This document shows, piece after piece, positions 15,590 through 52,110 of a stretch of DNA of 64,000 nt. The stretch comes from Nocardiopsis potens DSM 45234 (GTDB taxonomy: Bacteria; Actinomycetota; Actinomycetes; Streptosporangiales; Streptosporangiaceae): the NCBI RefSeq assembly GCF_000341105.1, contig NZ_ANBB01000037.1, positions 62,001-126,000 on the forward strand. The letters run 5' to 3'. Numbering within the stretch: position 1 is the stretch's first letter; the number at the start of each line of letters is the position of its first letter. Position numbers and translations under genes: made by a program. Below the pieces are notes generated by a model. That model was not told the origin of the DNA. It did no database searches and saw nothing but the letters and a program-made list of their open reading frames with translations.

Positions 15590-17325
15590 GGCGCGGCGCC
15601 TCACGGGACCCGGTGACAGCGGCCCGGGAAGGAACGGCGCGGAGGGCGGTCGCCCGAGCACGGGCCCCACGGAGCGGGGGTTCAAGCAGGCGGCGAGGGC
15701 GGGAAGGGGCGACCGGCCAGTCGGTCGGGTGCGGCGCCCCACGAAGTGAAGGTTCAAGCGGGCGGCGAGGGCGGTGGTGGGGGACCGGCTGGTCGGTCGG
15801 GTGCGGCGCCCTGCGGGGTGGGGGTTCAGACCGGCGGCGACGGCAGCGGTAGGAGCGGGGCGGAGGCGGCCGCCCGAGGGGCGGGCCCCACGGGGTGGCG
15901 GTTCAGGCTGGCGGCGAGGGCGGTGGTGGGGACCGGCCGGTCGGTCGGGCGCGGCGCCTCACGGGGTGGCGGCTCAAACCGGCGGCGACGGCATAGGAAG
16001 GGGCGGGGCCGGGCGCCTCACCCGAGCGCGGCGTCTCGCGGAGCGAAGGTTCAAGCAGCGGCGACGGCAGCGGTGGGGGCTGGGGGCAGGTGGTCGCCCG
16101 GGCGCGGGCCCCACGGGGTGAGGGTTCAAGCGGGCGGCGAAGGCGGGGAGGGACACCGGCTGGTCGGTCGGGTGCGGCAGAGCAGGGCGGGGGCGGTCGA
16201 GGTGGGCCGGGGCGGCGGGATCGCCGTTCCCGCGTCGCCGGGGGCACCGGGGCCGGCCGCCCCTGAAACCGCCGCACCTCCCTGAACTGGATGAATACGC
16301 AGGGTGATGGCGAGGAGGGGCGCCCTGCACACCGCGAGAGCACCCCGGTGATTCCCAGGCGCGCATCCCGGCCGGGAACGGGCCCCGGAAGCCCCGAATC
16401 GTCCTGATCAGGCCGGTGGTGAAGGGTTCAAGCCGCCTGGAAGGCAGCAAAGTAGAGGCCCGAAACTCGGGCAGGGGCGGCGCGGGGGCGAGATGTCGCT
16501 TTTGTTTCCTCGAGGGGCCCCGCCCTGGCCACTCCGGGTAATCAGCGAGGGGGCGATGGGGGTCTCGGGGCTCACTACTCGCTGGTAGATGTAATCGGGG
16601 TGCTGCGGAGGTGTGCAGGGCGCCTCCTCCTTCGGCTGTTCCCTGCTGCAAACCCGGCATATAGGGATAAGGCCCCAGGTGGGCCCGCCCTCGCCTTCAC
16701 CGGGCCCCGCCCTGCTCCCCGCCGGAAGCATGTGCGGGCCGGACCGGTGAGCGCGGCGCCCGCCCCTCCTCGCCTTCGCTGCCTGCTTGAACCCTCGCCC
16801 TGTGAGGCGCCGCGCCCGGGCGATCGCCTCCGCCCTGTCCCTACCTTCGCCGTCGCCGCCCGTTTTGACCTTCGCTCCGTGGGGCGCCGCGCCGGACCGA
16901 CCAGCCGGTTCCCACTGCCGCCTTCGCCGCCCGCTTGAACCCCGACTCCGCGAGGCGCCGCACCCGGCTGGAGCGTCAAGCTCCGTCCCCCCGCTGCCGT
17001 CGCTGCTTGTCTTGACCTTCGCTCTGCGGGGCGCCGCGCCGGACCGACCGGCCGGTTCCCACTGCCGCCGTCGCCGCCTGCTTGAACCCTGACCCCGCGA
17101 GATGCCGCGCTCGGGTGAGACGCCCGCCCCGTGCCTGCCGCTGCCGTCGCCGCCTGCCTGAACCTTCGCTCTGCGGGGCGCCGCGCCGGATCGACCGGCC
17201 GGTTCCCACTGCCGCCTTCGCCGCCCGTCTTAGCCCCCGCCCCGTGGGATGCCGCGCTCGGGCGATCGCCTTCGCGCCGTTCCTTCCCGGGCCGCTGTCG
17301 CTGGGTCCCGTGGGCACCGTGCTCG
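15590..17325. repeat. Repeat locus 1: flanking tandem arrays in opposite orientation around a conserved core
   Basis: A non-coding block between two tail-to-tail genes. Left array (about 15590-16155): degenerate units marked by GGTTCAAGC followed by GGGCGGCGA and TCGGTCGGGTGCGGCG. Right array (about 16755-17325): the same units reversed, with alternating lengths of about 70 and 77 bp (unit starts near 16788, 16866, 16936, 17013, 17083, 17159, 17231). The outermost sequences form a long inverted repeat: GACAGCGGCCCGGGAAGGAA at about 15614 has its complement near 17278-17297. The open frames here are Arg/Gly/Pro-rich and not conserved between copies. Related to loci at 43680-44910 and 51060-52110. 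Confidence 0.85.
16156..16754 (-). repeat. Repeat family core, copy 1 (inverted relative to copies 2 and 3)
   Basis: About 600 bp that is the reverse complement of the cores at 43913-44523 and 51344-51939. The marker ACATCTACCAGCGAGTAG reads on the minus strand at about 16575-16592. An internal inverted repeat (about 16317-16353 and 16593-16629; GGTGCTCTCGCGGTG type) encloses about 240 bp. No reading frame is consistently preserved among the three copies. Confidence 0.8.
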
Positions 17326-17339
17326 GGAGGAGTGAGGTG

Positions 17340-18272
17340 TCAGGCCGGGTCGGGAGGGCGTTGGCCGCGGGTGGCGCCGACGCTGGCGGCCACCACGCAG
17401 CCGATGGCCAGCCACTGCCAGCCGGAGAGCACCTCGCCCAGCAGTGCCAGGCCGACCAGCGCGGCCGCCGCCGGCTCCAGGCTCATCAGGATGCCGAACA
17501 CCCGGGTCGGCATCCGGCGCAGCGCCTGCATCTCCAGCGAGTACGGCACCACCGAGGAGAGCAGGCCCACCGCCAGGCCGATCAGCAGCAGCCGCCAGTC
17601 GAGCAGGCCCGTCCCGCCTTCGGCGATGCCGGCCGGCGCCATCGCGAAGGCGCCCACCACGCTGGCGATGGCCAGCCCGGAGGTGCCGGCGAAGCGCCGC
17701 CCGGTGGACGCGCTGAGCAGGATGTAGGCGGCCCAGGCCGCCGCGGCGAGCAGGGCGAAGCCGACCCCGGCCGCGGTGATGTCGCCGTCGCTGCGGCCCA
17801 GCAGCACCACGCCGGTCCCGGCCAGCAGCACCCACAGCACGTCGATCCGGCGCCGCGAGCCCAGGATGGCCACGGTGAGCGGGCCGAGGAACTCGATGGT
17901 CACCGCGATGCCCAGCGGGATCCGGGCGATCGCCTGGTAGAGCGCGTAGTTCATGACGGCCAGGGAGAGGCCGAAGGCGACCGCCACCGCCCAGTCGGCG
18001 CGCGTACGCCCGCGCAGCACCGGCCGGGCCAGGGCGACGAGCACGATCGCGGAGGTGAGCAGCCGGAGCCAGACCACCGCGCTCGGCGGGAGCACCCCGA
18101 ACAGGTTCTTCGCGATGCCGGCGCCGGCCTGCACCGACACGATGCCGACCAGCACCATCCAGGTGGGCGGGATGTTGTCGGCGAGCCCGCGCAGGCTCCC
18201 GGCGGCGAACGGGTTGGAGAAGAGGGGCCGGCCCGGGTACTCGGGGCGGCCGGAGGCTGCTTCGGCGGTCAC
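17340..18272 (-). CDS. EamA/RhtA-type exporter (DMT superfamily)
   Basis: 310 aa with about ten hydrophobic spans arranged as two EamA repeats. The first includes LRLLTSAIVLVALARP and IARIPLGIAVTIEFLGPL; the second includes VPYSLEMQALRRMPTRVFGI and LMSLEPAAAAL, which match RhtA-like threonine/homoserine exporters. Substrate not determinable. The stop lies directly beside repeat locus 1, and the gene is divergent from arcA. Confidence 0.88.
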   Translation of the reverse strand: MTAEAASGRPEYPGRPLFSNPFAAGSLRGLADNIPPTWMVLVGIVSVQAGAGIAKNLFGVLPPSAVVWLRLLTSAIVLVALARPVLRGRTRADWAVAVAFGLSLAVMNYALYQAIARIPLGIAVTIEFLGPLTVAILGSRRRIDVLWVLLAGTGVVLLGRSDGDITAAGVGFALLAAAAWAAYILLSASTGRRFAGTSGLAIASVVGAFAMAPAGIAEGGTGLLDWRLLLIGLAVGLLSSVVPYSLEMQALRRMPTRVFGILMSLEPAAAALVGLALLGEVLSGWQWLAIGCVVAASVGATRGQRPPDPA

Positions 18273-18398
18273 GACCGATCATCCTAGGACCTGGGGGGCG
18301 CCGCCCGCTTCGGCCTCCCCCGGGTTCACCGGCGCCCCCGGGGGAATGCAGCCTTCGTCCGGAGCAGCCGGAACCCAGGAGACAGGAGAGGGGAGCGC

Positions 18399-19619
18399 AT
18401 GGTCTTCCGCGTCGCATCGGAGGTGGGGCGCCTGCGGCAGGTCATCGTGCACCGGCCCGGCCTCGAACTCAAGCGGCTCACCCCGTCCAACAAGGACGCC
18501 TTCCTCTTCGACGACGTGCTGTGGGTGAAGCGGGCCCGGGAGGAGCACGACGCCTTCGCCGCCCTGCTGCGCGGGCACGGCGTCGCGGTGCACTACTTCC
18601 ACGAACTGCTCCAGGAGGTGCTGGCGGTGCCCGAGGCCCGCGCCTTCATCCTGGGCGAGGTGGTGGACGAGCGGTTCCACGGCCCCCGGGCCGCCGACCC
18701 GCTGCGCGCCGCCCTGGACGGGATGGGCGACGAGGAGCTGCGCCGCTTCCTCATCGGCGGCATCACCAAGGCCGAGATCCTGGAGCGCTCCGCGGACCCC
18801 TCCTCGCTGTGGCTGCACTCCCTGGGCCCGGACGACTTCGTCCTCGACCCGCTGCCCAACCACCTGTTCACCCGGGACACCTCCTGCTGGCTGTACGGCG
18901 GGGTGTCGATCAACCAGATGCGGAAGAAGGCCCGGCGCCGGGAGACCGTCCACTACGAGGCGGTCTACCAGTGGCACCCGATGTTCGCCGGGGCCGGGTT
19001 CGAGGTCTGGAACCGGGGCCGGGTGCACGCCCCCGCCACCATCGAGGGCGGCGACGTGATGCCGATCGGCAACGCGTCGGTGCTGGTGGGGATGGGGGAG
19101 CGGACCCAGCCGCAGGCCGTGGAGCTGCTGGCCCGGGAGATGTTCGCCCGGGGCGGCGCGGAGCGCCTGGTCTGCCTGCGGATGCCGCACGCCCGCGCGG
19201 TGATGCACCTGGACACCGTGATGACCAACGTGGACCGGGGCGTGTTCACCGCCTACGCGGGCCTGGGGCTGCTGCCGTCGTTCACCATCGAGCCCGGCGG
19301 GGACGGCAAGGAGCTCAAGGTCACCGACCACCCGCCGGAGGACATGTACCGGGTGATCGCCGAGGCCGCCGGGGTGGACCGGCTGAAGGTGCTCACCCCG
19401 GTGCAGGACGTGTTCTCCTCCCAGCGCGAGCAGTGGGACGACGGGTGCAACGTCTTCGCCCTGGAGCCGGGGGTGGTGGTCGCCTACGAGCGGAACATGA
19501 CCAGCAACGCCCACCTGCGGGACAACGGGATCGAAGTGCTCACCATCAGCGGCGGCGAGCTGGGCCGCGGCCGCGGCGGCCCGCACTGCATGACCTGCCC
19601 TATCGAACGGGATCCGTGA
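18399..19619 (+). CDS. arcA: Arginine deiminase
   Basis: Hydrolyses L-arginine to citrulline and ammonia. 406 aa with guanidino-modifying-enzyme motifs: [28 protein letters not shown] and the catalytic Cys near the C-terminus in GGPHCMTCP (C397). Start ATG preceded by AGGAGAGGGGAG. No arcB, arcC or arginine/ornithine antiporter is adjacent, so it is not part of a local ADI pathway operon. The 3' end overlaps the convergent small membrane gene by 20 bp. Confidence 0.95.
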
Positions 19620-19977
19620 CCGGCTCCGCGGTCTCCGCGGCCGGCGGCCCCCCGGCCGCGGGCCGCACCCGGCGCAGCCCGCCGACCGCTGCGACCAGCA
19701 GCAGCGCCCAGGCGGCCGCCTCCAGCCCGGGCTGCACCAGGATCATCGCCAGCCCGACCTCGGTGCGCCCGCCGATCCCGGCGCCGGCCTGGGCCAGCAG
19801 CCAGCCGAACGGCAGCGCCGCCGCGGCCAGCTGCACCGCCAGCGCGGCCCACACCAGCCCGCGCCGGGCCGGCCTCCGCCGCACCAGCAGCACCGCGCCG
19901 ACCGCGAACAGCACCGCGGCGGGCCCGACCGCCCGCACCACCGCAACCCAGGGAACGTCGATGAACTCCACCGGCAC
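19600..19977 (-). CDS. Small hypothetical membrane protein
   Basis: 125 aa, not recognised. Three to four hydrophobic spans (roughly residues 10-32, 40-62, 75-100) and a short Pro/Ala/Glu-rich tail that overlaps the 3' end of arcA. It follows the HicB-like gene after 17 bp on the same strand, so the two may be co-transcribed. Confidence 0.55.
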
Positions 19978-19993
19978 ACCCTACGGGGACGGC

Positions 19994-20206
19994 TCAGGCG
20001 GCCTGCACCGAGGCCGCGACGGTGGAGGGGACGGGGACCGGCAGGCCCTCGGCGCGGAGCCCGTCGAGGTGGAAGTCGATCGCCCCGCGCATCTCCTCGA
20101 TGGTCTCGTCCACGGTGTCGCCCAGGGCCACGCAGCCGGGGAGGTCCGGGCACCATGCCCCGTAACCGTCGTGGCCGGGTTCGATGAGGATCACGTACCG
20201 GCTCAT
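19994..20206 (-). CDS. HicB-like antitoxin/UPF0150 protein, orphan
   Basis: 70 aa beginning MSRYVILIEPGHDGYGAWCPDLPGCVALGDTV, the classic HicB partial RNase-H-like fold (GYxAxxPDLPGC), followed by EEMRGAIDFHLDGLRAEG. There is no C-terminal DNA-binding domain and no HicA toxin gene next to it. In actinobacteria such solitary HicB-like proteins are common; the role is unknown. Confidence 0.8.
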   Translation of the reverse strand: MSRYVILIEPGHDGYGAWCPDLPGCVALGDTVDETIEEMRGAIDFHLDGLRAEGLPVPVPSTVAASVQAA

Positions 20207-20292
20207 CCGAGTCCTTCCTTGCTCCCGCACCGGATCCGTCGGTGCCAGGATGCCGGAGCGGCCGCCGGTACGGCGGCTCTTCCGGCGGAAAG

Positions 20293-21084
20293 TCACTCCC
20301 AGCGGAAGAAGCGGGCCGCCAGGGCCGCGCCGGCCGCGGTCCACAGGGCCAGTACCAGGACCGGGGCCAGGGTCGGGGCGGCGCCGTCGGCGAGGACCGC
20401 GCGCAGGCCCTCGGCCAGGGCGGTGACCGGGAGGGCCTGGAGGAGCGGCTGGACCGCGTCGGGGAAGCGGTCGGTGGCGAAGACCACCCCGCCCAGGCCG
20501 AGCAGGACCACGTAGACCAGGTTGGCCGCGGCCAGGGTGGCCTCGGCGCGCAGGGTGCCCGCCATCAGCAGGGCCAGCGAGCTGAACGCCGCGGTGCCCA
20601 GCAGCACCAGCAGCACGCAGTAGGCCAGCCCGGCCGGGTCGGCCGCGGGGCGCCAGCCGAGCAGCACCGCGGTGGCCCCGATGACCAGGAACTGCAGCGC
20701 CTCCACCGCGAGCACCGCCAGGGTCTTGGCGGCGAGCAGCCCGAACCGGGAGAGCGGGGTCGCGCCGAGCCGCTTGAGCACGCCGTAGCGGCGCTCGAAG
20801 CCGGTGCCGATGGCCTGGCCGGTGAAGGCGGTGGAGAGCACCGCCAGGGCCAGCACGCCGGGGGTGAGGAAGTCGACGCGCGGCCCGGAGCCCAGGTCGA
20901 GCACGCCGGTGGTGCTGAAGCCGACCAGCAGCAGCACCGGGATGACCATGGTGAGCAGCAGCTGCTCGCCGTTGCGGAGCATGACGCGCAGCTCCATGCC
21001 GGCCTGGGCGGCGACCATCCGGTGCAGTGGGGCGGCGCCCGGCGCCGGGGTGAACGGGGAGGTCCCCGAGGCGGTTGGGGTCAT
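20293..21084 (-). CDS. ABC-2 type transporter permease
   Basis: 263 aa with six predicted hydrophobic spans and the ABC2 pattern (ERRYGVLKRLGATPLSRFGLLAAKTL). Its ATG overlaps the stop of the ATPase gene (ATGA), indicating translational coupling. Homologous gene pairs lie beside sufR in Mycobacterium tuberculosis (Rv1457c/Rv1458c), as recalled from the known map. Substrate unknown. Confidence 0.9.
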   Translation of the reverse strand: MTPTASGTSPFTPAPGAAPLHRMVAAQAGMELRVMLRNGEQLLLTMVIPVLLLVGFSTTGVLDLGSGPRVDFLTPGVLALAVLSTAFTGQAIGTGFERRYGVLKRLGATPLSRFGLLAAKTLAVLAVEALQFLVIGATAVLLGWRPAADPAGLAYCVLLVLLGTAAFSSLALLMAGTLRAEATLAAANLVYVVLLGLGGVVFATDRFPDAVQPLLQALPVTALAEGLRAVLADGAAPTLAPVLVLALWTAAGAALAARFFRWE

Positions 21085-22031
21085 GGTTCTCGCAGCTCGC
21101 GTCCGGTGAGTTCGAGGAAGACGTCTTCCAGGGTGCGGCTCTGCACGCGCAGCCCCTCGGGGTCGACGCCGTTGGCGGCGCACCAGGTGCTGACCGTGGC
21201 GACCAGCTCCGGGCCGATCCGGCCGTCGGCGTCCTCCCCGGAGACGGTGCAGGCGGTCCGTCCGCCGGCGCCCTCCGCGCGGACCTCCACCCTGGTCCCC
21301 TCGGGCAGGGCGGTGCGCAGCGCCTCGGCGTCCAGCCCGGAGCGGGCCTCGAAGCGCAGCTCCTGGCGGGCCCGGGTGAGCTCGGAGGTGCTGCCGTCGG
21401 CGACCACCCGGCCGGAGTCGATGATGACCACCCGGTCGGCCAGCCGCTCGGCCTCCTCCATGTAGTGGGTGGTCAGCAGCACCGCCACCCCGGCGTCGCG
21501 CAGTTCGGCGACCAGGTCCCAGGTGGCGTGGCGGGCCTGCGGGTCCAGTCCGGCGGTGGGCTCGTCCAGGAAGACGGCCTCGGGGCGGCCGATCACCGCC
21601 GCGGCCAGCGACAGCCGCTGCTGCTGGCCGCCGGAGAGCCGGCGGAACGGGGTGCGCGCCGCCGAGGTCAGGCCCAGCCGCTCCAGCAGCGACTCCGGGG
21701 CGATCGGGCGGGCGTGGAAGGAGGCCATCAGGCGCAGCCACTCGCCGGCCCGGGCGCCGGTGGGCACCCCGCCGGACTGCAGCATCACGCCGACCCGCGG
21801 CTTGAGCCGGGCGGCGTCGGCCACCGGGTCCATGCCCAGCACCCGCACCGTGCCGGCGTCGGCGCGGCGGAAGCCCTCGCAGATCTCGACCGTGCTGGTC
21901 TTGCCGGCGCCGTTCGGGCCGAGCAGCGCGGTCACCGCGCCCGCGGGCGCGGTGAACGACAGTCCGGCGACGGCGGTGGTCTCGCCGTACCTCTTGACCA
22001 GGTCGGTGACCTCGACCGCGGGTGTTCCCAT
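21081..22031 (-). CDS. ABC transporter ATP-binding protein
   Basis: 316 aa. Walker A GPNGAGKTS (about residue 38), Q-loop MLQSGG, signature LSGGQQQR (about 135), Walker B AVFLDEPTAGLDP and switch His in LLTTHYMEEAE. The C-terminal extension resembles the DrrA-type exporter ATPases. Pairs with the downstream permease through a 4-bp overlap. Start ATG 22031. Confidence 0.94.
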   Translation of the reverse strand: MGTPAVEVTDLVKRYGETTAVAGLSFTAPAGAVTALLGPNGAGKTSTVEICEGFRRADAGTVRVLGMDPVADAARLKPRVGVMLQSGGVPTGARAGEWLRLMASFHARPIAPESLLERLGLTSAARTPFRRLSGGQQQRLSLAAAVIGRPEAVFLDEPTAGLDPQARHATWDLVAELRDAGVAVLLTTHYMEEAERLADRVVIIDSGRVVADGSTSELTRARQELRFEARSGLDAEALRTALPEGTRVEVRAEGAGGRTACTVSGEDADGRIGPELVATVSTWCAANGVDPEGLRVQSRTLEDVFLELTGRELREP

Positions 22032-22353
22032 GGCAGCAGAGTCTATGGGCGCCCCGCCGCCGGGCTGCACCGGCCCGGCCCGGCGGGGCGCCGCGGCCTC
22101 CGCCCCGGCCCCCGCGGCGCCGTGCCGGACGGGGCGGATGCGCACCGGCGGGACGTGCGGGGGCGCCGGGGCCGTCCCGGATACCGGTCGCCCTGTATCA
22201 CATGCCGAGAGAATTTCGGCCCGGCCGCGGCCCGCTGCGGAGTGACGGACCGCTCTCTGCGGGTGAAACGCCTGCAAGGTAAGGCTTGCCTGGGTGATGA
22301 ATGGCATGGATCACCGTTTGCCCCAACGGAACTATTTACGCCACACTGATGTT
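22032..22353. other. Divergent ABC transporter/sufR control region
   Basis: About 320 bp with no credible gene. It holds the promoters of both transcription units, a DtxR-type box candidate at 22275-22293 and the SufR site at 22343-22357. The local fall in GC after 22190 fits a regulatory region. Confidence 0.65.
22275..22293. promoter_or_regulatory. Possible DtxR/IdeR-type iron box upstream of sufR
   Basis: CAAGGTAAGGCTTGCCTGG matches 12 of 19 positions of the IdeR consensus TTAGGTTAGSCTAACCTAA by my own alignment, including AGGT and CCT in the two half-sites. It lies about 60 bp before the sufR start. Functional iron control is inference. Confidence 0.4.
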
Positions 22354-22357
22354 GTGA
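22343..22357. promoter_or_regulatory. SufR operator overlapping the sufR start
   Basis: Exact ACACT-N5-TGTGA inverted repeat (ACACT GATGT TGTGA). I recall this as the binding site reported for M. tuberculosis SufR. It overlaps the likely GTG start of sufR at 22354, so bound SufR would block transcription initiation of the suf operon. Confidence 0.75.
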
Positions 22358-23145
22358 AAAAGGTGAGCGGCGGACAGAGGGCGCGCGAGGGCGGCGCGCA
22401 CGATCCCGCGCGCACTCCGGCCGTGCCCGACCTGGGCGCCGAGACCGGGACGCGCGCGCGGGTCGCCCGACTCATCCTCGAACAGGGTCCGATCACCGCC
22501 TCCAGCCTGGGGGAACGGCTCGGACTCACGCCGGCGGCGATCCGCCGGCACCTTGACAACCTCATGGGCGAGGGCCTCGTGGAGGCCCGCGACGCCCGGC
22601 CGATCGGGCGGCGCGGCCGCGGCCGGCCGGCCAGGGTGTTCGCGATCACCGAAGCCGGGCGCGACGCGTTCGTGCACGGCTACGACGACCTCGCCTCCAG
22701 CGCGCTCCGCTTCCTGGCGGAGCGGGCGGGACCGGGGGCGGTCACCGAGTTCGCGCGGCGCCAGGTCGCCGAACTGGAGGCCCGCTACCGGCCGCTCCTG
22801 GAGGGCGTGCCCCCTCAAGCGAGGGTGCGCAAGCTCGCCGAGGCGCTGACCAACGACGGCTACGCGGCTGCCGCGGCCGAGGCGCCCGCGCCCGGCGGTG
22901 GACAGCAGCTCTGCCAGCACCACTGCCCGGTGGGGCACGTGGCGGCCGAGTTCCCGGAGCTGTGCGAGGCGGAGGTGGAGGCCTTCGCCCGCCTGCTGGG
23001 GACCCCGGTCCGGCGGCTGGCGACCATCGCCCACGGCGACGGCGTCTGCACCACCCACGTGACACCCCGGGACATCGAGGCCGGCGGTACCGCCCAGGCC
23101 CGCCAGACCCCCGCCGACGGCGGGCGAGACCAACAGGACGTCTGA
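22354..23145 (+). CDS. sufR: SufR, Fe-S cluster-sensing repressor of the suf operon
   Basis: 263 aa. A winged helix-turn-helix occupies residues about 30-95 ([30 protein letters not shown]), and a C-terminal cluster-binding region carries [20 protein letters not shown] and GDGVCTTHV, the cysteines expected to hold a [4Fe-4S] cluster. GTG 22354 was chosen since it coincides with the operator and has no Shine-Dalgarno; in-frame ATGs at 22294-22306 would add an atypical N-terminus. The arrangement suggests a leaderless, autorepressed transcript. It is followed after 19 bp by sufB. Confidence 0.93.
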
Positions 23146-23164
23146 GTCCAGGAGGATCCGCGTA

Positions 23165-25748: not shown

Positions 25749-26070
25749 CGGCGGTTTCGTGAAGGTCTGCACGCTGAGCGACGTCCCCGACGAGGGGGCG
25801 CTCGGCGTGGAGGTCGGCGACACCCCGGTCGCGGTGGTGCGCAGCGAGGGAGAGGTGTACGCGATCAGCGACATCTGCTCGCACGCCGAGGTCAACCTGT
25901 CCGAGGGGGAGGTCGAGGACGGCACCATCGAGTGCTGGCTGCACGGCTCCTGCTTCGAACTCTCCTCCGGCAAGCCGATCAACCCTCCCGCCACCCGGCC
26001 GGTACCCACCTACGCAGTCAAGATCGATGGCGATGACGTGCTCGTCTCGCTGGACACCGAGAATTCCTGA
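25741..26070 (+). CDS. Rieske-type ferredoxin of the suf operon
   Basis: 109 aa. Two-Cys/two-His [2Fe-2S] Rieske motif: CSHAEVNLSEGE (C-x-H, about residue 48) and CWLHGSCFELSSG (C-x2-H, about 66). The ATG lies inside the last codons of sufD, so translation is coupled. A non-heme-dioxygenase-ferredoxin-like protein at this place is common in actinobacterial suf operons and may supply electrons for cluster assembly; that role is inferred. Confidence 0.93.
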   Translation: MSDGGFVKVCTLSDVPDEGALGVEVGDTPVAVVRSEGEVYAISDICSHAEVNLSEGEVEDGTIECWLHGSCFELSSGKPINPPATRPVPTYAVKIDGDDVLVSLDTENS

Positions 26071-39945: not shown

Positions 39946-43554
<3,609 letters not shown>

Positions 43555-43679
43555 CCCGCCCGCGCCCGCACCGCCCACGGGACGGGCGGATCCCCAGCGC
43601 CCCGGCGACCTTTCCGCCGGACGCGTCGGTCGGGCACGGCGAAGGAAGGCACAGCAAAGGAAGGCACAGCGAGGGTAGG

Positions 43680-44910
43680 GGCGGGGCGCAGGCCTCACCC
43701 GGGCGCGGCGCCCCACGGGGTCGGGCTTAAAGCGGGCGGCGAAGGCGGCGGTGGGGGCCGGCCGGTCGGTTAGGCGCGGCGCCCCACGGAGTGAAGGTTC
43801 AAGCAGCGGCGACGGCAGCGGTAGGGGCGGGACGAAGGTGGTCGCCCGGGCGTCGGGCCCCACGGGGTCAGGGTTCAAGCGGGCGGCGAGGGGGGGAGCG
43901 GGGCGAGGCTCCGCGTTCACCGGTCAGGGGCGGCGCGTGCTCCCGGTGAGGGGAGCAGGGCGGCGCCCCGGCGGCGCGGGCCGGCCCGCCTGCCCGCGCC
44001 CGCCAGGGGGCCTTATCCCCATATGCCTGCTTTGCGGCAGGGAACGGGCGAGCGTGGGGGCGCCCTGCGCATCGCGAGAGCACCCCGATTACATCTACCA
44101 GCGAGTAGTGAGTCTCGAAGCCCCCACCACCCCCTCATCGATTACCCAGAGTGACCAATCGGGGCCTTTTGGGGGAACGAAAGCGGCATTCCGCCCCTGC
44201 CTCTCCTCTTCCCGGGTTCCGGCCCCCTGCTTTGCGGCCTTGCGGGCGGCTCGAACCCCCGATCACCGGCCCGATCAGGGCGATCCGGGCCTCTCGGGGC
44301 CGATCCGGCCCAGGATGCGCGCCCAGGAATCACCGGGGTGCTCTCGCGGTGCGCAGGGCGCCCCACCCCGCCATCGCCCTGCGTATTTGCCCAGGTCAGA
44401 GAGGTGTGGCGGTTTCAAGGGAGGCCGACCCCGGCGCCCGGGCGGCGCGGGAACGGCGATCCTGCCGCCCCGGCCAGCCCCGACCGGCCCTCCCCGCTCT
44501 GCTGCACCCGACCGACCAGCCGGTTCCCCTGCCTGCCTTCGCTGCCCGCTTGAACACCCGCCTAGCGAGACGCCGCGCCCGGGCGATCACCTCCGCCCCG
44601 CCCCTACCTGTGCCGTCGCCGCCCGTCTTGACCTTCGCTCCGCGAGACGCCGCGCCGGACCGGCCGGCCGGTCCCCACTGCCGCCCTCGCTGCCCGCCTG
44701 AACCTCGGCCCCGTGGGGTGCCGCGCCCGGCTGGGGTGCTCGGCCCCGCCCCTACTGGCGCCGTCGCCGCCTGCTTGAACCCTCACCCCGCGAGACGCCG
44801 CGCTTGACCGACCGGCCGGCACGCCCTTCCGCCTTCGCCGCCTGCTTGAACCCCGGCCCCGCGAGATGCCGCGCCCGGCCGGGGCGCCTGACCGGGGCGC
44901 GGGGGGGGTG
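43680..44910. repeat. Repeat locus 2: flanking tandem arrays around a conserved core
   Basis: Non-coding region between tail-to-tail hyuAB and the GntR gene. The left array (about 43690-43912) reads GGTTCAAGC-GGGCGGCGA units forward. The right array (about 44524-44910) reads them reversed (CCGCTTGAAC, then GCGAGACGCCGCGC). Immediately upstream (about 43638-43672) is a short 15-bp tandem repeat GAAGGAAGGCACAGC / AAAGGAAGGCACAGC. Same architecture as 15590-17325 and 51060-52110. Confidence 0.85.
43913..44523 (+). repeat. Repeat family core, copy 2
   Basis: 611 bp from GCGTTCACCGGT to CCGACCAGCCGG. It contains the marker ACATCTACCAGCGAGTAG (44091-44108) and a long internal inverted repeat: left arm 44056-44090 and right arm 44328-44364 (centred on GGTGCTCTCGCG), enclosing 237 bp. 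Reading frames differ between copies, so conservation is at the DNA or RNA level. It could be an MITE-like insertion or a structured RNA. Confidence 0.8.
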
Positions 44911-44953
44911 AGGCACCGGGGTGCCGGGGTGCCGGAGTACTGGGGCGCCGGGG

Positions 44954-45661
44954 TCAGGCCGGGGCGTGCCGCTCTGCGCCGTCGAAGGCCTCGACCAGCT
45001 GCCGCTCGGCGGCGTCGAAGTAGGCGGCGAGCCGCTCGGCGGCGGCCTCCGTGCGGCCCTCCCGGAGCAGCTCGTAGATCTCCCGGTTCAGCGCCACGTA
45101 GGGCACGTGGAACTCCTCGGGGGCGGCCATCACGTGGAAGACCAGCCGCAGCTCCGCGAGGAGCCGGCGCACCGCCTCGTCGGTCCGCGGGCTGCCGGCC
45201 AGTCCGGCGACGGCCTGGTGGAAGTGCATGTTGGCGGTGCCCACCGCCCACCAGTCGGCGCGGGCCGCCGCGTCCTCGGCCTCCTGCACGGCGGCGCCGA
45301 CCCGGGCCACCGCCTCCGGGTCCGCGCCGCCGGCCGCGCGGAGCGCGGCCAGCTCCAGGGCGCGCCGCACCAGGTACAGGTCGGTGACGTCGTCCCGGGT
45401 CGGCTTGGCGACGAACACGCCGCGGTTGAACTCGTGCACCAGCAGCCGCTCGTGGCCGAGCAGCCGGAACGCCTCGCGCAGGGTGTTGCGGGAGACGCCC
45501 AGTGCCGATCCGATGGCCTCCTCGGACAACCGTTCGCCCGGCGCCATGGCCCCCGCGATGACCTGCGCGCGCAGGACGTCGGCGACACGCTCCGCGGTGC
45601 TGGAGCGCTCCAGCGTGCCGCGCAGTGCGGAGAGCCGGTCCAGTCCCTCGCTCGTGGTCAC
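44954..45661 (-). CDS. GntR-family regulator (FCD subfamily)
   Basis: 235 aa. N-terminal winged HTH (SALGVSRNTLREAFRLLGHERLLVHEFNRGVFVA, residues about 45-85) and an all-helical FCD ligand domain with metal-site-like His residues (MHFHQAVAG, about 145; FHVMAAPEE). Start GTG 45661. Divergent from the NRAMP-like/pxp genes and a likely regulator of them via the palindrome at 45796-45808. Confidence 0.92.
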   Translation of the reverse strand: MTTSEGLDRLSALRGTLERSSTAERVADVLRAQVIAGAMAPGERLSEEAIGSALGVSRNTLREAFRLLGHERLLVHEFNRGVFVAKPTRDDVTDLYLVRRALELAALRAAGGADPEAVARVGAAVQEAEDAAARADWWAVGTANMHFHQAVAGLAGSPRTDEAVRRLLAELRLVFHVMAAPEEFHVPYVALNREIYELLREGRTEAAAERLAAYFDAAERQLVEAFDGAERHAPA

Positions 45662-45795
45662 CCGTCCCCGCCTTCGCCCGCCGTCGCCGTCCGTCCTCCC
45701 ATTGTGGCGGATCGCAGCGGTGGTCCGGCTCACCGGGGGGTGTGGCCTGGGACGCTCTCCGGGGGTACCATGGCAGCCGTTCGCTCGATCAGAGA

Positions 45796-45808
45796 ATTGT
45801 TCAACAAT
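45796..45808. promoter_or_regulatory. GntR/FCD operator palindrome
   Basis: ATTGTT-C-AACAAT, a 13-bp perfect palindrome containing the T-G-T...A-C-A pattern of FCD-type GntR sites. It sits between the divergent GntR gene (135 bp away) and the NRAMP-like gene (83 bp away). Confidence 0.7.
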
Positions 45809-45890
45809 CCTCATGTCGTTCGGGCGGACGCCCCCCGCCATTCCCCGCAACCCCCTCCTCCCCGGAGGGCCGGACCCCAGTGAGGACCGT

Positions 45891-47126
45891 ATGAGCGGAA
45901 CGAAGGGAACCGCCGCGCCCGTGCGGCGCGCAGCAGGGCGCAGCGCCCTCCTCGGGGCCGTGTTCCTGATGGCCACCAGCGCCGTCGGGCCGGGCTTCAT
46001 CACCCAGACCACCGAGTTCACGGCGACGCTGGGCGCCGCCTTCGCGTTCGCCATCGCGGTGTCGATCCTGATCGACGTCGCCGTCCAGCTGAACCTGTGG
46101 CGGGTGATCGGCGTCGCCGGCCGCCGCGCCCAGGAACTGGCCGAACAGGTGCTTCCCGGCGCCGGGTACCTGCTGGCCGCGCTGGTGGTCTTCGGCGGCC
46201 TGGTGTTCAACGTCGGCAACGTCGCCGGGACCGCGCTCGGCCTGGACGCGCTGGCCGGGATCGACGTGAAGATCGGCGGCGCGGTCTCCGCGCTGATCGC
46301 GATCGGCGTCTTCGCCAGCAGACGCGCCGGGATGGCGATGGACCGGATCATCGTCGCCCTGGGCGTCGCGATGATCGCCATGACGCTCTACGTCGCGTTC
46401 ACCTCGAACCCCCCGGTCGGCGAGGCGCTGCGGAACACGGTCCTCCCCGAGGAGCTGGGCTCCCCGATGTTCGTCGCGATCGTGACCATCGTCGGCGGCA
46501 CGGTGGGCGGCTACATCACCTACGCCGGCGCGCACCGGCTGCTCGACGCCGGCGTCTCCGGGCCGGAGAACGTCAAGGAGATCACCCGGGCCTCGGTGAC
46601 CGGCATCATCGTCACCGGCGTCATGCGGGTGGTGCTCTTCCTCGCGGTGCTCGGCGTGGTCGCCGGCGGCGTCTCGCTGGCCGGCCTGGACAACGCCCCG
46701 GCCGCCGCCTTCCAGCACGCCGCCGGGGAGTTCGGGCTGCGCCTGTTCGGGGTGATCATGTGGGCCGCCGCGATCAGCTCGGTGATCGGCGCCTCCTACA
46801 CCTCGGTCTCCTTCGTCACCTCCTTCCACCCCTGGGCGGAGCGGAACCGCTCCTGGCTGGTGGCCGGGTTCATCGCCGTCTCCGCCGTGCTCTACCTGCT
46901 GCTCGGTCAGGCCCCCGCGCAGCTGCTGATCACGGCGGGCGCGCTGAACGGCCTCATCCTGCCGATCGGCTTCGCCATCATGCTGTGGGTGGCGGCCCGC
47001 CGCCGCGACCTGCTCAACGGCTACCGCTACCCGCGCTGGCTGCTCGCCCTGGGCATCGCCGGCTGGCTGGTGAGCGTGTACATCGCCTGGCAGGCGCTGT
47101 CCGGCCTGTCCGCGCTCTGGTCCTGA
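45891..47126 (+). CDS. NRAMP-family transporter lacking canonical metal ligands (YcsG-like)
   Basis: 411 aa with about 11 hydrophobic spans and the NRAMP fold pattern. In the first helix the canonical DPGN metal motif is replaced by GPGF (residues 33-36). The sixth-helix MPH motif is also not evident ([12 protein letters not shown]). In Bacillus subtilis the NRAMP-like ycsG sits in the same ycsF-kip operon. I infer transport of something other than a divalent metal, for example 5-oxoproline. ATG 45891 follows GAGGA. Confidence 0.88.
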
Positions 47127-47179
47127 CCGCCCCCATCGCCCCACCGCCCCCGACAGAGGAAACAGGAGGACGCACACCG

Positions 47180-47980
47180 GTGCGCATCGACCTCAACTCC
47201 GACCTGGGTGAGAGCTTCGGACGCTGGGAACTCGGCGACGACGAGGCGCTGCTGTCCATCGTCACCAGCGCCAACGTCGCCTGCGGGTTCCACGCCGGGG
47301 ACCCGACCGTGCTCCGCCGCACCTGCGAGCAGGCGGTGCGCGGCGGCGTCGCCATCGGGGCCCAGGTGGGCTACCGGGACCTCGCCGGATTCGGCCGCCG
47401 GTTCATCGACGTGCCGCCCGAGGACCTCGCCAACGACGTGCTCTACCAGATCGGCGCCCTGGAGGCGATGGCCCGCGCGGCCGGCGGCCGGGTCGGCTAC
47501 GTCAAGCCGCACGGCGCGCTGTACAACGCCATCGTGCACCACGAGGAGCAGGCCGAGGCGGTGGCGCGGGGCGTCCGCGCCTTCGCCCCGGACCTGGCCG
47601 TGCTCGGGCTGCCCGGGTCGGCCTGGCTGCGCGCCGCCGAGCGGGCCGGGCTGCGCCCCGTGCGCGAAGCGTTCGCCGACCGCGCCTACACCCCGGAGGG
47701 CACCCTGGTGCCGCGCCGCGAACCCGGCGCGGTGCTGCACGACGCCGAGGAGATCGCCGAGCGGTGCCTGCGGATGGCCCGCGGCGAGCCGGTGGCCGCC
47801 GTCGACGGCACCCCGGTCCGGGTCGGCGCCGAGTCGCTGTGCGTGCACGGCGACAGCCCCGGCGCGGTGGACATCGCCCGCAAGGTCGCCGAGCGGCTGC
47901 GCGGCGCCGGGGCCGCCGTCGAGGCGTTCGCCCCGCCGAGCCCCGCCGCACACCGGGAGGACCCGGCGTGCACGTTCTGA
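47180..47980 (+). CDS. pxpA: 5-oxoprolinase subunit A (LamB/YcsF family)
   Basis: 266 aa. Family motifs [49 protein letters not shown] and [16 protein letters not shown]. With PxpB and PxpC it forms the prokaryotic ATP-dependent 5-oxoprolinase. GTG start after AGGAGGA. Overlaps pxpB by 13 bp. Confidence 0.95.
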
Positions 47981-48579
47981 ACTGCGCCGACTCCGGGGTG
48001 CTGGTCGAGGTCGAGGACCTGGGGCGGGTGCTGGCGCTGCAGGCCGCGCTGGCCGAGGACCCGATCCCCGGAGTGGTCGAGGTCGTCCCGGCGGCGCGCA
48101 CCGTGCTGCTGCGGATCGACCCGGCGGCCCCCGGCGGGCCCCGGGCCGTCGCCGACGCGGTGCGCCGCCTCCGCCCCAGCCCCGGCGGCCGCCCCGCCGG
48201 GCCCGAGGTGGAGATCGAGGTGCACTACGACGGCGCCGACCTGGCCGACGCCGCCGCGCTCACCGGGATGACCGAGCGGGAGCTGGTCCGCGCGCACACC
48301 GCCGCCGAATGGACCGTCGCGTTCTGCGGGTTCGCCCCCGGGTTCGGCTACCTGGTCTGCGACGACCCCCGGCTGCGGGTGCCGCGCCGGGGCGAGTCCC
48401 GCACCCGGGTCCCGGCCGGGTCGGTGGCCCTCGCCGGCGGCTTCGGCGGGGTGTACCCGCGCAGCTCCCCCGGGGGCTGGCAGCTCATCGGGCGGACCGA
48501 CGCCGTCGTATGGGACCTGGACCGCGACCCGCCGGGCCTCCTCGCCCCGGGCACCCGGGTCCGGTTCCACGAAGCATGA
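47968..48579 (+). CDS. pxpB: 5-oxoprolinase subunit B (KipI family)
   Basis: 203 aa. Carboxyltransferase-type domain C/D with [30 protein letters not shown] and [14 protein letters not shown] start inside the end of pxpA. Unusually, about 630 bp of repeat-rich DNA separate it from pxpC, whereas these genes normally adjoin or overlap. Confidence 0.94.
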
Positions 48580-48639
48580 GCCGGACACCCCGCCGGCACG
48601 GGGAGGGCGCTCGGCGCCGGGGCCGGCGGTGACCACCGC

Positions 48640-49010
48640 GGATCGTGCGGCGGGCCTTCTCCGCCTCGGGGCCACTCACCGCCGGCGGGCAGGGGGCGCG
48701 GCCCTGAACGGGTGAGCGCTTCCGGGACGGCGGCCGGGCCGGTGCAGAGGGGGGCGGGGATGCCGTGCAGCGGCGGTCGAGGGCCGTGCGGGGCGGGTCT
48801 TCTCCGCTCTGCGGGACCGCCGCCGGCGGATAGGGCTGCGGCCCTGCGCCGGTGAACGGCTCCGGGCCGGTGCAGGCGGTGCAGGGAGAACGGCGGTGGC
48901 GGCCGCCGGCCGTGCGGCGGGTCTTCTCCGCTTCGCGGCTCGCCCGCCGCGGACGGCTCCGGGGCGCGGCCCTGCACGGGTGAGCGGATGCGGGCCGGCG
49001 GCCGGATCGG
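48640..49010 (+). repeat. Three imperfect tandem repeats between pxpB and pxpC
   Basis: Three copies spaced about 125-143 bp. Each has CTTCTCCGC (48656, 48799, 48923) and, 39-43 bp later, GCGGCCCTG (48698, 48838, 48966) followed by a GGTGA and GGGCCGG block. The rest of the 630-bp gap (48580-49208) shows no gene. The sequence differs from the three large repeat loci. Confidence 0.7.
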
Positions 49011-49208
49011 CGCCGGAAGAGGGGAGGCCGTAGGGCGGGCCCCTCCGCCGGTCGCGCCGCCCGTCCGCGGCCGGTCGGCGGGGACCGCGGTCCGGCCCGG
49101 CGAGCGGCCCCGGGGCGGCCCTAGGCCGGCGGGGAAGGGACAGGGAGAGTACGGGGGCGGCCCGCGCCGGGAACGGATCGGGCGCGGGCGGTTCAAGGAA
49201 GGTGGAAG

Positions 49209-50135
49209 ATGACGGCGACGATGACGGCGCCGCTCCCCGGGGCGGGGGCGGCACCGGCGGAGGGACGCGGCGGAGCGGCACTGGAGGTGCTCGCTCCGGG
49301 GCCCTTCGCCACCGTCCAGGACGGCGGCCGGCCCGGCCGGGCCGCACTGGGCGTGGGCGCCTCCGGCGCGGCCGACCGGGCCTCCTACGGCCTGGCCAAC
49401 CGGCTGCTCGCCAACCCGGAGGGCGCCCCGGCCGTCGAGGCGACCCTGGGCGGCCTGGAGCTGCGCGCCCGGGGCGACCTGTGGGTCGCGGTCACCGGCG
49501 CCGAGTGCGCCGTCACCGTCGGCGGCCGCGGCGGCGCGATGAACACCGTGCTGCGGCTGCGCGACGGCGAGCGGCTGCGGCTCGGCGCCCCAGCCCGCGG
49601 CCTGCGCAGCTACGTCGCGGTGCGCGGCGGCGTCGCGGTCCGCCCGGTGCTCGGCTCGTGCAGCACCGACGTGCTGGCCGGCCTCGGCCCGGACCCGCTC
49701 GCCCCCGGCGACCTGCTCCCGGTCGGCCCGCCGCCCGCGGCGGCCCCGGTGCTGGACGCCGCACCGGCCGCCCCGGTCGGCGCCGACTCCGCGGAGCTGC
49801 GGGTGGTGCTCGGCCCCCGGGACGCCTGGTTCGCCCCGGAGGCGGTCCGCGCCCTGCTCGGCGCCGACTTCGAGGTGACCGTCCGCAGCGACCGGGTCGG
49901 CATGCGCCTGGCCGGCCCGCCGCTGCCGCGCGCCGTCGACGGCGAGCTGCCCAGCGAGGGCATGGTGCCCGGAGCCCTCCAGGTGCCCCCGGACGGCGAG
50001 CCGGTGCTGTTCCTCGCCGACCACCCGGTGACCGGCGGATACCCGGTGATCGCGGTGGTGCTCTCCGCCGACCTGCCCGCCGCCGCCCAGGCCCGGCCCG
50101 GCACCCGGCTGCGCTTCCGGGCGGTGCGGCCGTGA
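49209..50135 (+). CDS. pxpC: 5-oxoprolinase subunit C (KipA, biotin-dependent carboxyltransferase-like)
   Basis: 308 aa. Motifs [65 protein letters not shown] and [15 protein letters not shown] preceded by GAAGGTGGAAG. Partner of PxpA and PxpB; its stop overlaps an alternative start of the next gene. Confidence 0.94.
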
Positions 50136-50182
50136 CCGGCCCCGACCGGAGAACCGACCCCGACCGGAAAGGCGGCGACGCC

Positions 50183-50968
50183 GTGACCACCGACCCCGCT
50201 GCACTCACCCCCGCCGAGGCCCGCGCGCTCTTCCGCGGCGGGCTGGTGACGCCCACCGCCGGCTACAGCGCCGGGTACGCCCAGGCCAACCTGATCGCGC
50301 TCCCGCGCGACCTGGCCTTCGACTTCCTGCTGTTCGCGCAGCGCAACCCCAAGGCCTGCCCGGTGCTGGACGTGGCCGACGCGGGCGAGGTCTCGGCGTC
50401 GGTCTTCGCCGGCGACCTCCGCACCGACCTGCCCGCCTACCGGGTGTACGAGCACGGCCGCCAGGTCGCCGAGACGGCGGACGTGCGCGACGTGTGGCGG
50501 GACGACCTGGTCTCCTTCCTGATCGGGTGCAGCTTCACCTTCGAGGCGCCGCTGCTGGCCGCCGGGGTGCCGCTCCGCCACCACGAGGCCGGGAGCAACG
50601 TGGCGATGTTCACCACGAACCGGCGGTGCCGCCCGGCCGGCCGGCTCTCCGGGCCGCTGGTGGTCTCCATGCGCCCGATCCCCGCAGGGCAGGTGGCCGA
50701 CGCGGTCCGGGTGACCTCCCGCTACCCGGCGGTGCACGGCGCACCGGTGCACGTCGGCGACCCGGCCGCACTGGGCATCGCCGACCTGGACCGGCCCGAC
50801 TTCGGAGACCCGGTCGAGGTCTGCCCCGGGGAGATCCCGGTCTTCTGGGCCTGCGGCGTCACCCCGCAGGCCGCGGTGGCGGCCTCCGCCCCCGAGTTCG
50901 CCATCGGCCACGCCCCCGGCCACATGGCGATCACCGACGCCCGGGACGCCGACTACCAGGTCCCCTGA
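50183..50968 (+). CDS. DUF1445 (YcsI-type) putative hydro-lyase
   Basis: 261 aa from GTG 50183; GTG 50132 overlapping the pxpC stop would add 17 residues. Family motifs [57 protein letters not shown] and [14 protein letters not shown] with [11 protein letters not shown]. Related proteins accompany PxpABC (B. subtilis YcsI); the exact reaction is unknown. Confidence 0.9.
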
Positions 50969-51059
50969 CCGGCCGCCGGCCCCGGGCCGCCCGCCCCGGG
51001 TCGCTGATCTCGGCTCTGCGGGCCCCTGGGCGCTGAGGAACCCGGGAAGGGGCGAGGGG

Positions 51060-52110
51060 CGGGGGAGGAGGGGATCGGCCGGGCGCGGCGCTTCACGGGG
51101 TGAAGGTTCAAGCGGGCGGCGAGGGCGGGAGGAGGGGCCGGCCGGTCGGTCGGGTGCGGCGTCTCGCGGGGCGGGGGTTCCAGCGGGCGGCGACGGCAGC
51201 GGTGGGGGCCGGGCACTCCAGTCGGGCGCGGCGCCTCGCGGGGCGGGGGCGCAGGCGGGAAGGGGACCGGCTGGTCGGTCGGGTGCGGCGTCTCGCGGGG
51301 CCGGGGCTCAGACGGGCGGCGAGGGTGGGAGTGGGCGGGCGCTGCGTTCACCGGTTCGGCCCGGCGCCTGTTCCCGGCGGGAAGAGGCGGCGCCCCGGCG
51401 GCGCGGGGGTCTGCCCGCGCCCACCAGGGGTCATATCCCATATGCCCGGTTTGTAGCGGGGATCGGGGCAGGGTGGCGCACCCTGCGCACCTCCGCAGCA
51501 CCCCGATTACATCTACCAGCGAGTAGTAAGCCCTGAGGCCTCCACCACCCCCTCTTCGGTTACCCAGAGTGGTCGAGGTGGGCCTTTGGGTGGGACAAAT
51601 GCGACATCTTGCCCCCGTCTCTGTCCTTCCCCGGGTTTCGGTCCCTGCTTCCCGGTCTTGCGGGCGGCTCGAACCCCCGATCACCGGCCCGACCGGGCCG
51701 ATTCGGGCCCCTGGAGGGCCGAATGGCCCCGGGGTGCGCGCCCAGGAATCACCGGGGTGCTCTCGCGGTGCGCAGGGCGCCCCTCCTCGCCGTCACCCTG
51801 CGTATTCGCCCAGGTCAGGGGGGAGTGGTTTCAAGGGCGGTCGGCCCCGGCGCCGAGGCGGCGCGGGCGCGGCGATCTCGCCGCTGCTACCCGCCCCTGC
51901 CGCCCCGACCCGCTCCGCCGCGCCTGACCGACCGGCCGGCACGCCCTCTCGCCCTCGCCGCCTGTTCGAGCCTTCGCTCCGTGGGGCGCCGCGCCCGACC
52001 GACCGGCCGGTGCCCCTCCCGCCTTTGCCGCCCGCTGGAACCTTCGCCCCGTGGGGTGCCGCGCTCGGGTGATCGCCTCCACCCCGGCCCTTCCTTGGCC
52101 GTCGCTGCGG
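51060..52110. repeat. Repeat locus 3: flanking tandem arrays around a conserved core
   Basis: Non-coding region between tail-to-tail DUF1445 and PhoD-like genes. The left array (about 51080-51343) has forward GGTTCAAGCGGGCGGCGA units. The right array (about 51940-52110) has reversed units with CCGTGGGGYGCCGCGC. Core orientation as in locus 2. Confidence 0.85.
51344..51939 (+). repeat. Repeat family core, copy 3
   Basis: 596 bp aligned throughout with copy 2. Marker ACATCTACCAGCGAGTAG at 51509-51526. Internal inverted repeat arms at about 51475-51508 and 51747-51783; the left arm is more degenerate than in copy 2. The stretch TCTTGCGGGCGGCTCGAACC (51657-51676) is nearly identical to copy 2. 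Confidence 0.8.

What the first reader, a model, noticed from the sequence alone, without database searches (positions are those of the whole stretch)
15590..52110. Three large dispersed repeat loci, all between tail-to-tail genes
Loci at about 15590-17325, 43680-44910 and 51060-52110 share one architecture: forward tandem array, core of about 600 bp, reversed tandem array. Each sits between a plus-strand gene ending on its left and a minus-strand gene ending on its right. Because the arrays are inverted, each neighbouring transcript reads through the same sense of repeat. This recalls enterobacterial BIME/REP logic on a much larger scale: transcription barrier, mRNA 3' end, nucleoid or gyrase site. 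I know no described actinobacterial element like it.
Basis: partly seen in the sequence, partly recalled or inferred. Interest (0 to 1): 0.82.

Follow-up and report, generated by a model that had tools for sequence, protein, structure and literature searches.

The report
Mobile inverted-array repeats at gene ends
A bacterium carries over a hundred copies of a large non-coding DNA element, made of mirror-image repeat arrays around a conserved middle, that sits at the ends of genes probably because it jumps into small palindromes there, so that it looks like a bacterial counterpart of the 'foldback' jumping elements known from animals.

Summary
The three loci are real and share one architecture: inverted arrays of a ~74-bp unit around a ~520-bp core with no called gene. 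The family has 125 places in this genome (core 23-mer, <=3 mismatches; reversed control 0). Array polarity is fixed: 863 of 863 units in 85 copies point outward, 311 of 311 in a sister species. 'Always tail-to-tail' holds only inside the window: of 85 assessable copies 43 are convergent, 38 co-directional, 4 divergent. Among five congeners searched, only one (G004) has the core 23-mer. At 8 of 11 G000 sites checked there, G004 has no element. Of 95 cores, 36 have a recognised outer end resembling termini of an IS30-family insertion sequence, and 48 of 53 such ends abut half of a 64-bp palindrome that is itself dispersed at gene ends. Best reading: a non-autonomous, foldback-like mobile element spread at least partly by IS30-type insertion into palindromes, so placement follows targets plus selection. 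A 3'-end role stays open: in G000 (not significantly in G004) neighbouring genes more often lack their own hairpin (24/124 against 245/573). 59 of 95 copies lack recognised ends.

The parts
15514..15549 (+). Copy 1: degenerate IS30-like end module B at the outer left edge, just after the left gene's stop codon
   Evidence: B module matched with 10 mismatches of 36; the weakest of the matches accepted
15664..16143 (-). Copy 1: left array, 7 units, pointing away from the core
   Evidence: unit profile; TRF period 72/148
16173..16693 (-). Copy 1: core; constrained 23-mer at 16575-16597 (-)
   Evidence: nhmmer 480 bits; exact 23-mer at C37:78575-78597
16773..17257 (+). Copy 1: right array, 7 units
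   Evidence: TRF period 71/147
43703..43889 (-). Copy 2: left array, 3 units
43979..44506 (+). Copy 2: core; 31-bp inverted arms at 44057-44087 and 44334-44364 (97% complementary); 23-mer at 44086-44108
   Evidence: nhmmer 517 bits; inverted repeat I9
44536..44874 (+). Copy 2: right array, 5 units
51083..51322 (-). Copy 3: left array, 3 units
51408..51921 (+). Copy 3: core; 23-mer at 51504-51526
   Evidence: nhmmer 451 bits
51955..52064 (+). Copy 3: right array, 2 units

Best explanation
A high-copy, non-coding, non-autonomous mobile element with foldback architecture: [end B] - outward array - core - outward array - [end A]. Shown: the fixed architecture and copy number; presence in this genome (G000) and one sister species (G004) with different site occupancy; in 36 of 95 G000 copies, one or both outer ends A/B; half of a 64-bp palindrome next to nearly all such ends; intact copies of the palindrome elsewhere at gene ends. 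Inferred: A and B are the termini of an IS30-family insertion sequence whose transposase recognises them and inserts at the centre of the palindromes, with the array-core-array body in place of the transposase gene; because the palindromes lie mostly downstream of genes, and insertions into promoters or genes are selected out, the elements end up at 3' ends. Also inferred: recombination between the inverted arrays flips the core and, together with slippage, changes unit number (1-10 per arm); gene conversion or replacement keeps copies alike within a genome; loss of the ends leaves bodies without A/B. What the arrays and the constrained 23-mer do (protein binding, transcript 3' ends, or help in mobility) is not known.
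For: Copy number and control. Polarity 863/863 and 311/311. Presence/absence: in a 400-kb G004 stretch, 9 G000 sites could be placed; 5 have gaps of 110-543 bp without a core hit (all three window copies among them), 1 (L078) has no core but other sequence, 3 are occupied. L072 and L082, picked because they carry both ends, also have no element in G004. Total 3 of 11 occupied. Ends: 27 of 28 A ends and 21 of 25 B ends near cores have a palindrome half within 75 bp upstream (control windows in other gaps 38 of 1034); the junction lies at the palindrome centre in most (offsets 36-38 nt in 24 of 28 A, 34-35 nt in 18 of 25 B). IS30 link: the B-like relic at G004 C1:2438745 adjoins a piece matching NF033563 transpos_IS30 (C1:2438513-2438635, E 5.4e-5). 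In G004 L210 an IS30-type transposase gene (137 bits over 93-232 of NF033563, with a further piece downstream) begins next to a palindrome half followed by an A-like sequence; the same A-like sequence begins at a palindrome half at the start of G000 contig C99. At G004's empty sites for copies 1 and 3 an intact 62-bp palindrome lies between the flanks that enclose the element in G000. Palindrome and element occur in the same two genomes: 68 palindromes in G000, 25 in G004, 0 in 58 other genomes. Precedent: E. coli IS30 inserts at the central 2 bp of nearly palindromic hot spots with 2-bp duplications (PMC9333248, passages); REPs are targets of insertion sequences (PMC1525189, passages).
Against: 59 of 95 G000 cores have neither A nor B at the threshold used, and in G004 few ends carry them (4 A and 3 B matches in all). 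Ends A/B may therefore be a later addition to a body moved by something else. The expected 2-bp duplication is not clear: the dinucleotide just outside is CG in 14 of 28 A ends and 10 of 25 B ends. The A and B modules are similar, not identical, to the ends beside transposase genes (by eye). NF033563 finds nothing in G000; IS30-type ends there run off contig ends, so an active source copy was not seen. Only 2 of the 8 empty sites show a palindrome in G004; at L072 G004 has neither palindrome nor element. Copies with and without A/B are equally diverged (0.888, 0.888, 0.884 identity to consensus), so copies with ends are not visibly younger. Copies within G000 differ by 17% on average, more than 4-fold sites between the two species (10.3%), which fits badly with insertion after the split.
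Confidence: 0.58

Rival explanations
1. A selected 3'-end / transcription-barrier element: the polarised arrays end or protect both incoming transcripts, and placement between convergent genes is kept by selection.
For: Bias to 3' ends and convergent gaps (43/38/4); median distance from outermost unit to a gene's 3' end 109 bp (n=124) against 225 bp to a 5' end (n=46); fixed polarity; G000 genes beside elements lack their own hairpin more often (24/124 against 245/573, p=7.7e-7; shuffled sequence 39/230; 18/88, p=5.8e-5, for sides with >=80 bp before the first unit); the unit consensus differs at only 3 of 49 positions in G004 although cores average 68% identity between the genomes.
Against: 38 co-directional and 4 divergent copies; G004 lacks the element at 8 of 11 sites; the hairpin deficit is not significant in G004 (12/45 against 122/328); both genes at L072 keep hairpins outside the element that are also in G004. 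The deficit in G000 could simply mean that insertion split a hairpin. G-quadruplex motifs are fewer than in shuffled arrays (100 against 181-213 in ten shuffles) and units show no base-pair covariation.
Confidence: 0.22
2. Chromosome-organising sites: the 23-mer and the phased units bind a host protein (nucleoid-associated, segregation or topology), and the element is an inverted array of such sites.
For: The 23-mer is exact in 28 of 30 BLAST-found copies (loci L001-L030, chosen without the motif), where 7% would be expected from the average divergence; it holds a CTAC-N6-GTAG inverted motif; unit starts are most often 71 or 77 bp apart, about seven helical turns (inference); copies are spread over many contigs.
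Against: Absent from four of five congeners and from the other families searched, different occupancy between sisters, no binding data. The wider count of 90 of 95 exact is biased because those loci were fetched by the motif.
Confidence: 0.12
3. A structured non-coding RNA or RNA pair encoded by the core.
For: Consensus folding energy of the core alignment lies below column shuffles (z -6.2 and -7.2, a weak control); on the minus strand the paired fraction in G004 (0.915) exceeds 200 row permutations (maximum 0.906).
Against: Compensatory pairs do not exceed permutation (G000 minus strand 6 against mean 9.0; G004 13 against mean 9.6, maximum 14; plus strand 0 and 2); no Rfam family at the three window elements.
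Confidence: 0.05

Closest known systems
IS30-family insertion sequences and their non-autonomous derivatives
   Same: Ends A/B resemble sequences flanking IS30-type transposase genes of the sister genome; insertion at the centre of a palindromic target (E. coli IS30 hot spots: PMC9333248, passages seen)
   Different: No transposase; body of inverted tandem arrays and a conserved core of ~520 bp; most copies lack recognised ends; 2-bp duplication not established
Foldback transposons (Drosophila FB/Galileo/Tetris type)
   Same: Long internally repetitive inverted arms flanking a middle part, variable unit number, flipping middle (Galileo and Tetris seen only as listings and abstract openings: PMC3573991, PMC4079207; the rest recalled)
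   Different: Bacterial; ends of IS30 type; core strongly conserved; those elements are eukaryotic and of other transposase families
REP / BIME elements and REPINs
   Same: Dispersed, intergenic, mostly between convergent or co-directional genes (PMC3733652, passages); the 64-bp palindrome of this lineage is REP-like; REPs as targets of insertion sequences (PMC1525189, passages)
   Different: Over 1 kb instead of 20-40 bp units; no Y1 (RAYT-type) transposase found in G000 (PF01797)
Neisserial intergenic mosaic elements / pneumococcal BOX
   Same: Modular intergenic repeats with variable number of inner units (recalled; one pneumococcal repeat paper seen as listing only, PMC3049150)
   Different: No shared sequence was looked for or claimed; here two arrays always point away from a unique core

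Membership tests
IS30-family non-autonomous derivative | Terminal sequences matching those of an IS30-family element | tested here: inconclusive
   36 of 95 cores have A and/or B; B-like relic adjoins an NF033563 match and A-like sequence precedes a transposase gene in G004; 59 of 95 have neither; similarity judged by eye
IS30-family non-autonomous derivative | Insertion at the centre of a palindromic target | tested here: met
   For copies with ends: palindrome half upstream of 27/28 A and 21/25 B ends, control 38/1034 windows
IS30-family non-autonomous derivative | 2-bp target duplication | tested here: inconclusive
   CG just outside 14/28 A and 10/25 B ends; boundary uncertain by a base
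IS30-family non-autonomous derivative | Autonomous relative in the same genome | tested here: inconclusive
   NF033563: 8 matches in G004 (2 over cut-off), 0 in draft G000, where IS30-type ends lie at contig ends
Foldback transposon | Long inverted repeats made of tandem units around a middle part | tested here: met
   863/863 and 311/311 units outward, 1-10 units per arm (G000)
Foldback transposon | Membership of a eukaryotic foldback lineage (its transposase, 9-bp duplications) | not tested
   Architecture only; the 9-bp figure is recalled; no claim of kinship
REP/BIME | Short (20-40 bp) palindromic unit | tested here: not met
   Element 882-1726 bp from outermost unit to outermost unit; unit of ~74 bp is not a simple palindrome
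REP/BIME | Partner Y1 / RAYT transposase | tested here: not met
   PF01797: 0 matches in G000; control search positive in 5 of 14 genomes
REP/BIME | Intergenic, mostly convergent or co-directional | tested here: met
   43/38/4 of 85

The most novel reading that the evidence does not exclude
A bacterial foldback element that has become a mobile, two-sided transcript-end module: it inserts into terminator-like palindromes by IS30-type transposition, takes over termination for both neighbours through its polarised arrays, and its units and core 23-mer are kept by a host DNA-binding protein and by gene conversion, so that two sister species have rewired the ends of about a hundred transcripts each with different copies.
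Probability: 0.17. Interest if true: 0.87.

Novelty: new variant of a known kind. Interest (0 to 1): 0.62.

Why it matters
It would be a bacterial element with foldback architecture at very high copy number (125 places; with a median array-to-array length of 1257 bp about 2% of the genome, an estimate), and it shows how a 3'-end bias that looks like function can come from target choice. Two sister species with different occupancy at >94%-identical flanking genes offer a natural experiment on whether such elements change transcript ends.

Tried and rejected
Considered and set aside: (1) 'always convergent' - refuted genome-wide. (2) RAYT/REPIN system - no PF01797 in G000. (3) Known RNA family - no Rfam match at the window elements. 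(4) Core as a covarying RNA - no excess of compensatory pairs, though the paired fraction in G004 exceeded permutations and folding energies lay below column shuffles. (5) Unit hairpin by covariation - not seen. (6) G-quadruplex / R-loop barrier - G4 motifs fewer than in shuffles; strand skew is fixed (85 of 85 each side) but follows from polarity. (7) Plasmid or phage origin - no match to the copy-2 core at E 1e-5. (8) Wider spread - 81 of 297 family genomes gave a match at E<=0.001, but in the listed rows only G000 and G004 have long ones; the other pieces listed are at most about 100 bp; only 2 candidates per genome were scored, so distant relatives could be missed. (9) Exact 23-mer in genome contigs: none, near records may be left out. 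(10) Naming the organism: the genome-contig search with a window protein gave only distant genera; not resolved. (11) A second end type seen by eye in G004 and single-link clustering of 218 ends (120 in one cluster, 92 singletons) did not resolve further end classes. (12) Twelve sites occupied in both species: orientation kept in 10 of 12, and in each the G000 copy is on average nearer to other G000 copies than to its partner; compatible with gene conversion or with independent insertion into the same target; not decided. These twelve were found because both sides hold an element, so they give no rate.

Limits: gene calls come from a home-made codon-usage caller (369 training ORFs). G000 is a draft of 133 contigs and at least 12 contig ends lie in or at the edge of a core, so copies are undercounted. 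The 20-kb stretches were chosen by the 23-mer, so counts of intact cores and exact 23-mers in them are biased. The 23-mer listing stopped at 100 of 125 places.
Full report
OBSERVATION. The three loci are as described. Each has units of about 74 bp (a conserved ~47-bp block plus a variable spacer; successive unit starts most often 77 or 71 bp apart) in an array on either side of a core of about 520 bp. The arrays are inverted relative to each other. My gene caller, trained on 369 long ORFs, puts each locus between convergent genes; the neighbours are ordinary: CNNM/CBS transporter and EamA transporter; hydantoinase and GntR-type regulator; D-glutamate cyclase and PhoD-like phosphatase.

GENOME-WIDE. 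The core of copy 2 has 40 scored BLASTN places in its own genome (G000, 6.91 Mb, 133 contigs), itself included, the other 39 at 84-89% identity and near full length; 285 candidates were seen and only 40 scored. The pattern CGATTACATCTACCAGCGAGTAG has 125 places at <=3 mismatches, reversed control 0. I fetched stretches of up to 20 kb around 100 listed places. In them, 101 motif copies: 16 at edges, 85 assessable: 43 convergent, 38 co-directional, 4 divergent, none inside a called gene. Background gaps in the same stretches: 254 convergent, 768 co-directional, 260 divergent; of 52 convergent gaps of >=500 bp, 43 hold an element.

ANATOMY. In those 85 copies, 425 of 425 units left of the core are on the minus strand and 438 of 438 right of it on the plus strand; arms have 1-10 units; outermost unit to outermost unit spans 882-1726 bp, median 1257. 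The outermost unit lies a median 109 bp from a gene 3' end (n=124) and 225 bp from a 5' end (n=46). The core holds 31-bp inverted arms and the 23-mer, the most conserved window of the core alignment. The 23-mer is exact in 28 of 30 copies that BLAST found without use of the motif; from the mean divergence about 7% would be expected. The figure of 90 of 95 is biased by how the loci were chosen. The sister genome G004 has 311 of 311 units outward in 32 copies, and its unit consensus differs from that of G000 at 3 of 49 positions, while cores average 68% identity between the genomes and 83% within G000.

SPREAD. At <=2 mismatches the 23-mer is found in G000 (124) and in one of five same-genus genomes searched (G004, 5), and in none of the other 58 of 60 genomes. 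G004 also has many diverged copies: 7 in a contiguous 400 kb. BLASTN of the core in 297 family genomes gave long matches only in G000 and G004 among the rows listed. No match in the plasmid and phage collections.

TURNOVER. In the 400-kb G004 stretch nine G000 element sites could be placed by flanking genes: five have short gaps without a core hit (110 to 543 bp, the three window copies among them), one (L078) has no core but other sequence, three are occupied. Two further sites chosen because they carry both ends (L072, L082) have no element in G004 either. At twelve sites found occupied in both genomes, core orientation agrees in ten, and in all twelve the G000 copy is on average closer to other G000 copies than to its partner: concerted evolution, or repeated insertion into the same target. 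Four-fold sites differ by 10.3% between the species (100 genes, 24,995 sites), less than the 17% between copies within G000; this remains unexplained.

ENDS AND TARGET. Outside the outermost unit, 36 of 95 G000 cores have one or two constant modules, A and B (modules first seen, sequences; threshold 10 mismatches of 36). 27 of 28 A ends and 21 of 25 B ends have half of a palindrome within 75 bp upstream, against 38 of 1034 control windows. Two of the four B ends without a half (L096, L100) are insertion-sequence ends lying at the edge of a core, not outer ends. The whole palindrome, 62-64 bp and nearly perfect, is itself dispersed: 68 in G000, 25 in G004, 0 in 58 other genomes. It folds to about -60 kcal/mol. 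In the fetched stretches 38 intact ones in G000 lie 16 convergent, 20 co-directional, 2 divergent, not different from the elements (p=0.68) but different from gaps of >=100 bp (p=5.5e-4), as are the elements (p=8.5e-11). The palindrome, too, is present or absent at matching sites.

IS30 LINK. B-like relics read into a peptide of the form ..TPAEAL..FLVATT*, and the one in G004 adjoins an NF033563 (transpos_IS30) match at C1:2438513-2438635, E 5.4e-5. In G004 L210 a gene with rve and HTH matches below cut-off and NF033563 at 137 bits starts just after a palindrome half and an A-like sequence; this gene is interrupted by an IS110-type transposase gene. In G000 the family model finds nothing, but the same A-like sequence follows a palindrome half at the start of contig C99, and the two kinds of IS30-type end have three places each, five of the six at contig ends and one (C81) of unknown distance from its end, as expected if a multi-copy insertion sequence broke the assembly (inference). 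E. coli IS30 is known to insert at the central 2 bp of nearly palindromic hot spots with 2-bp duplications (PMC9333248, passages seen). Here the dinucleotide is only partly consistent. At L082 both sides read CG next to complementary halves. Among copies with both ends, B lies on the 5' side of the core in 9 and on the 3' side in 5, and two have A on both sides; core inversion between the arrays would explain this (inference).

FUNCTION. For a 3'-end role: in G000 gene ends beside elements have a >=10-bp hairpin within 80 bp in 24 of 124 cases against 245 of 573 elsewhere (p=7.7e-7), near the shuffled level of 39 of 230; with >=80 bp before the first unit 18 of 88 (p=5.8e-5). In G004 12 of 45 against 122 of 328, p=0.19. 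At L072 both neighbours keep their own hairpins outside the element, as in G004. So elements may take over termination after splitting a hairpin, or simply sit where termination does not matter. G-quadruplex motifs are below shuffled level, units show no pairing covariation, and the core shows no excess of compensatory pairs although G004's paired fraction exceeds permutation.

VERDICT. A lineage-specific, non-coding, foldback-like mobile element. The IS30-type route into palindromes is shown by anatomy for about a third of copies and inferred for the family. Library searches for prior description (open-licence PubMed Central only, listings) showed none that names such an element; passages were read in four papers.

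Noticed in passing
window 48580-49286: A different ~128-bp repeat in about two copies in a gap between two plus-strand genes; in the local data found only here and at the matching place of the sister genome (74% over 487 bp).
   Followed up: partly
window 58590-58655: Guanidine-III riboswitch (Rfam RF01763, 41.7 bits), just upstream of the plus-strand gene called at 58672.
   Followed up: no
L096 1-64, L100 19951-19991: An IS30-type 3' end lies at the 5' edge of a large-element core, so the insertion sequence also inserts into the large elements, and the contig ends there.
   Followed up: partly
L097 2540-2880: A mini form with one inward and one or two outward-side units but no core, at the place where the sister genome has a full element.
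   Followed up: partly
L210 1354-3429 (sister genome): An IS30-type transposase gene interrupted by an IS110-type transposase gene (Pfam DEDD_Tnp_IS110).
   Followed up: no
L075 5550-5611 and matching place in the sister genome: A 62-bp palindrome present in one species and absent in the other at a clean junction: the palindromes turn over by themselves.
   Followed up: partly
G000 contig ends (e.g. L031, L044, L080, L084, L093, L095, L097, L109, L113): At least a dozen contig ends lie inside or at the edge of large-element cores; L044 and L113 begin with nearly the same sequence.
   Followed up: no
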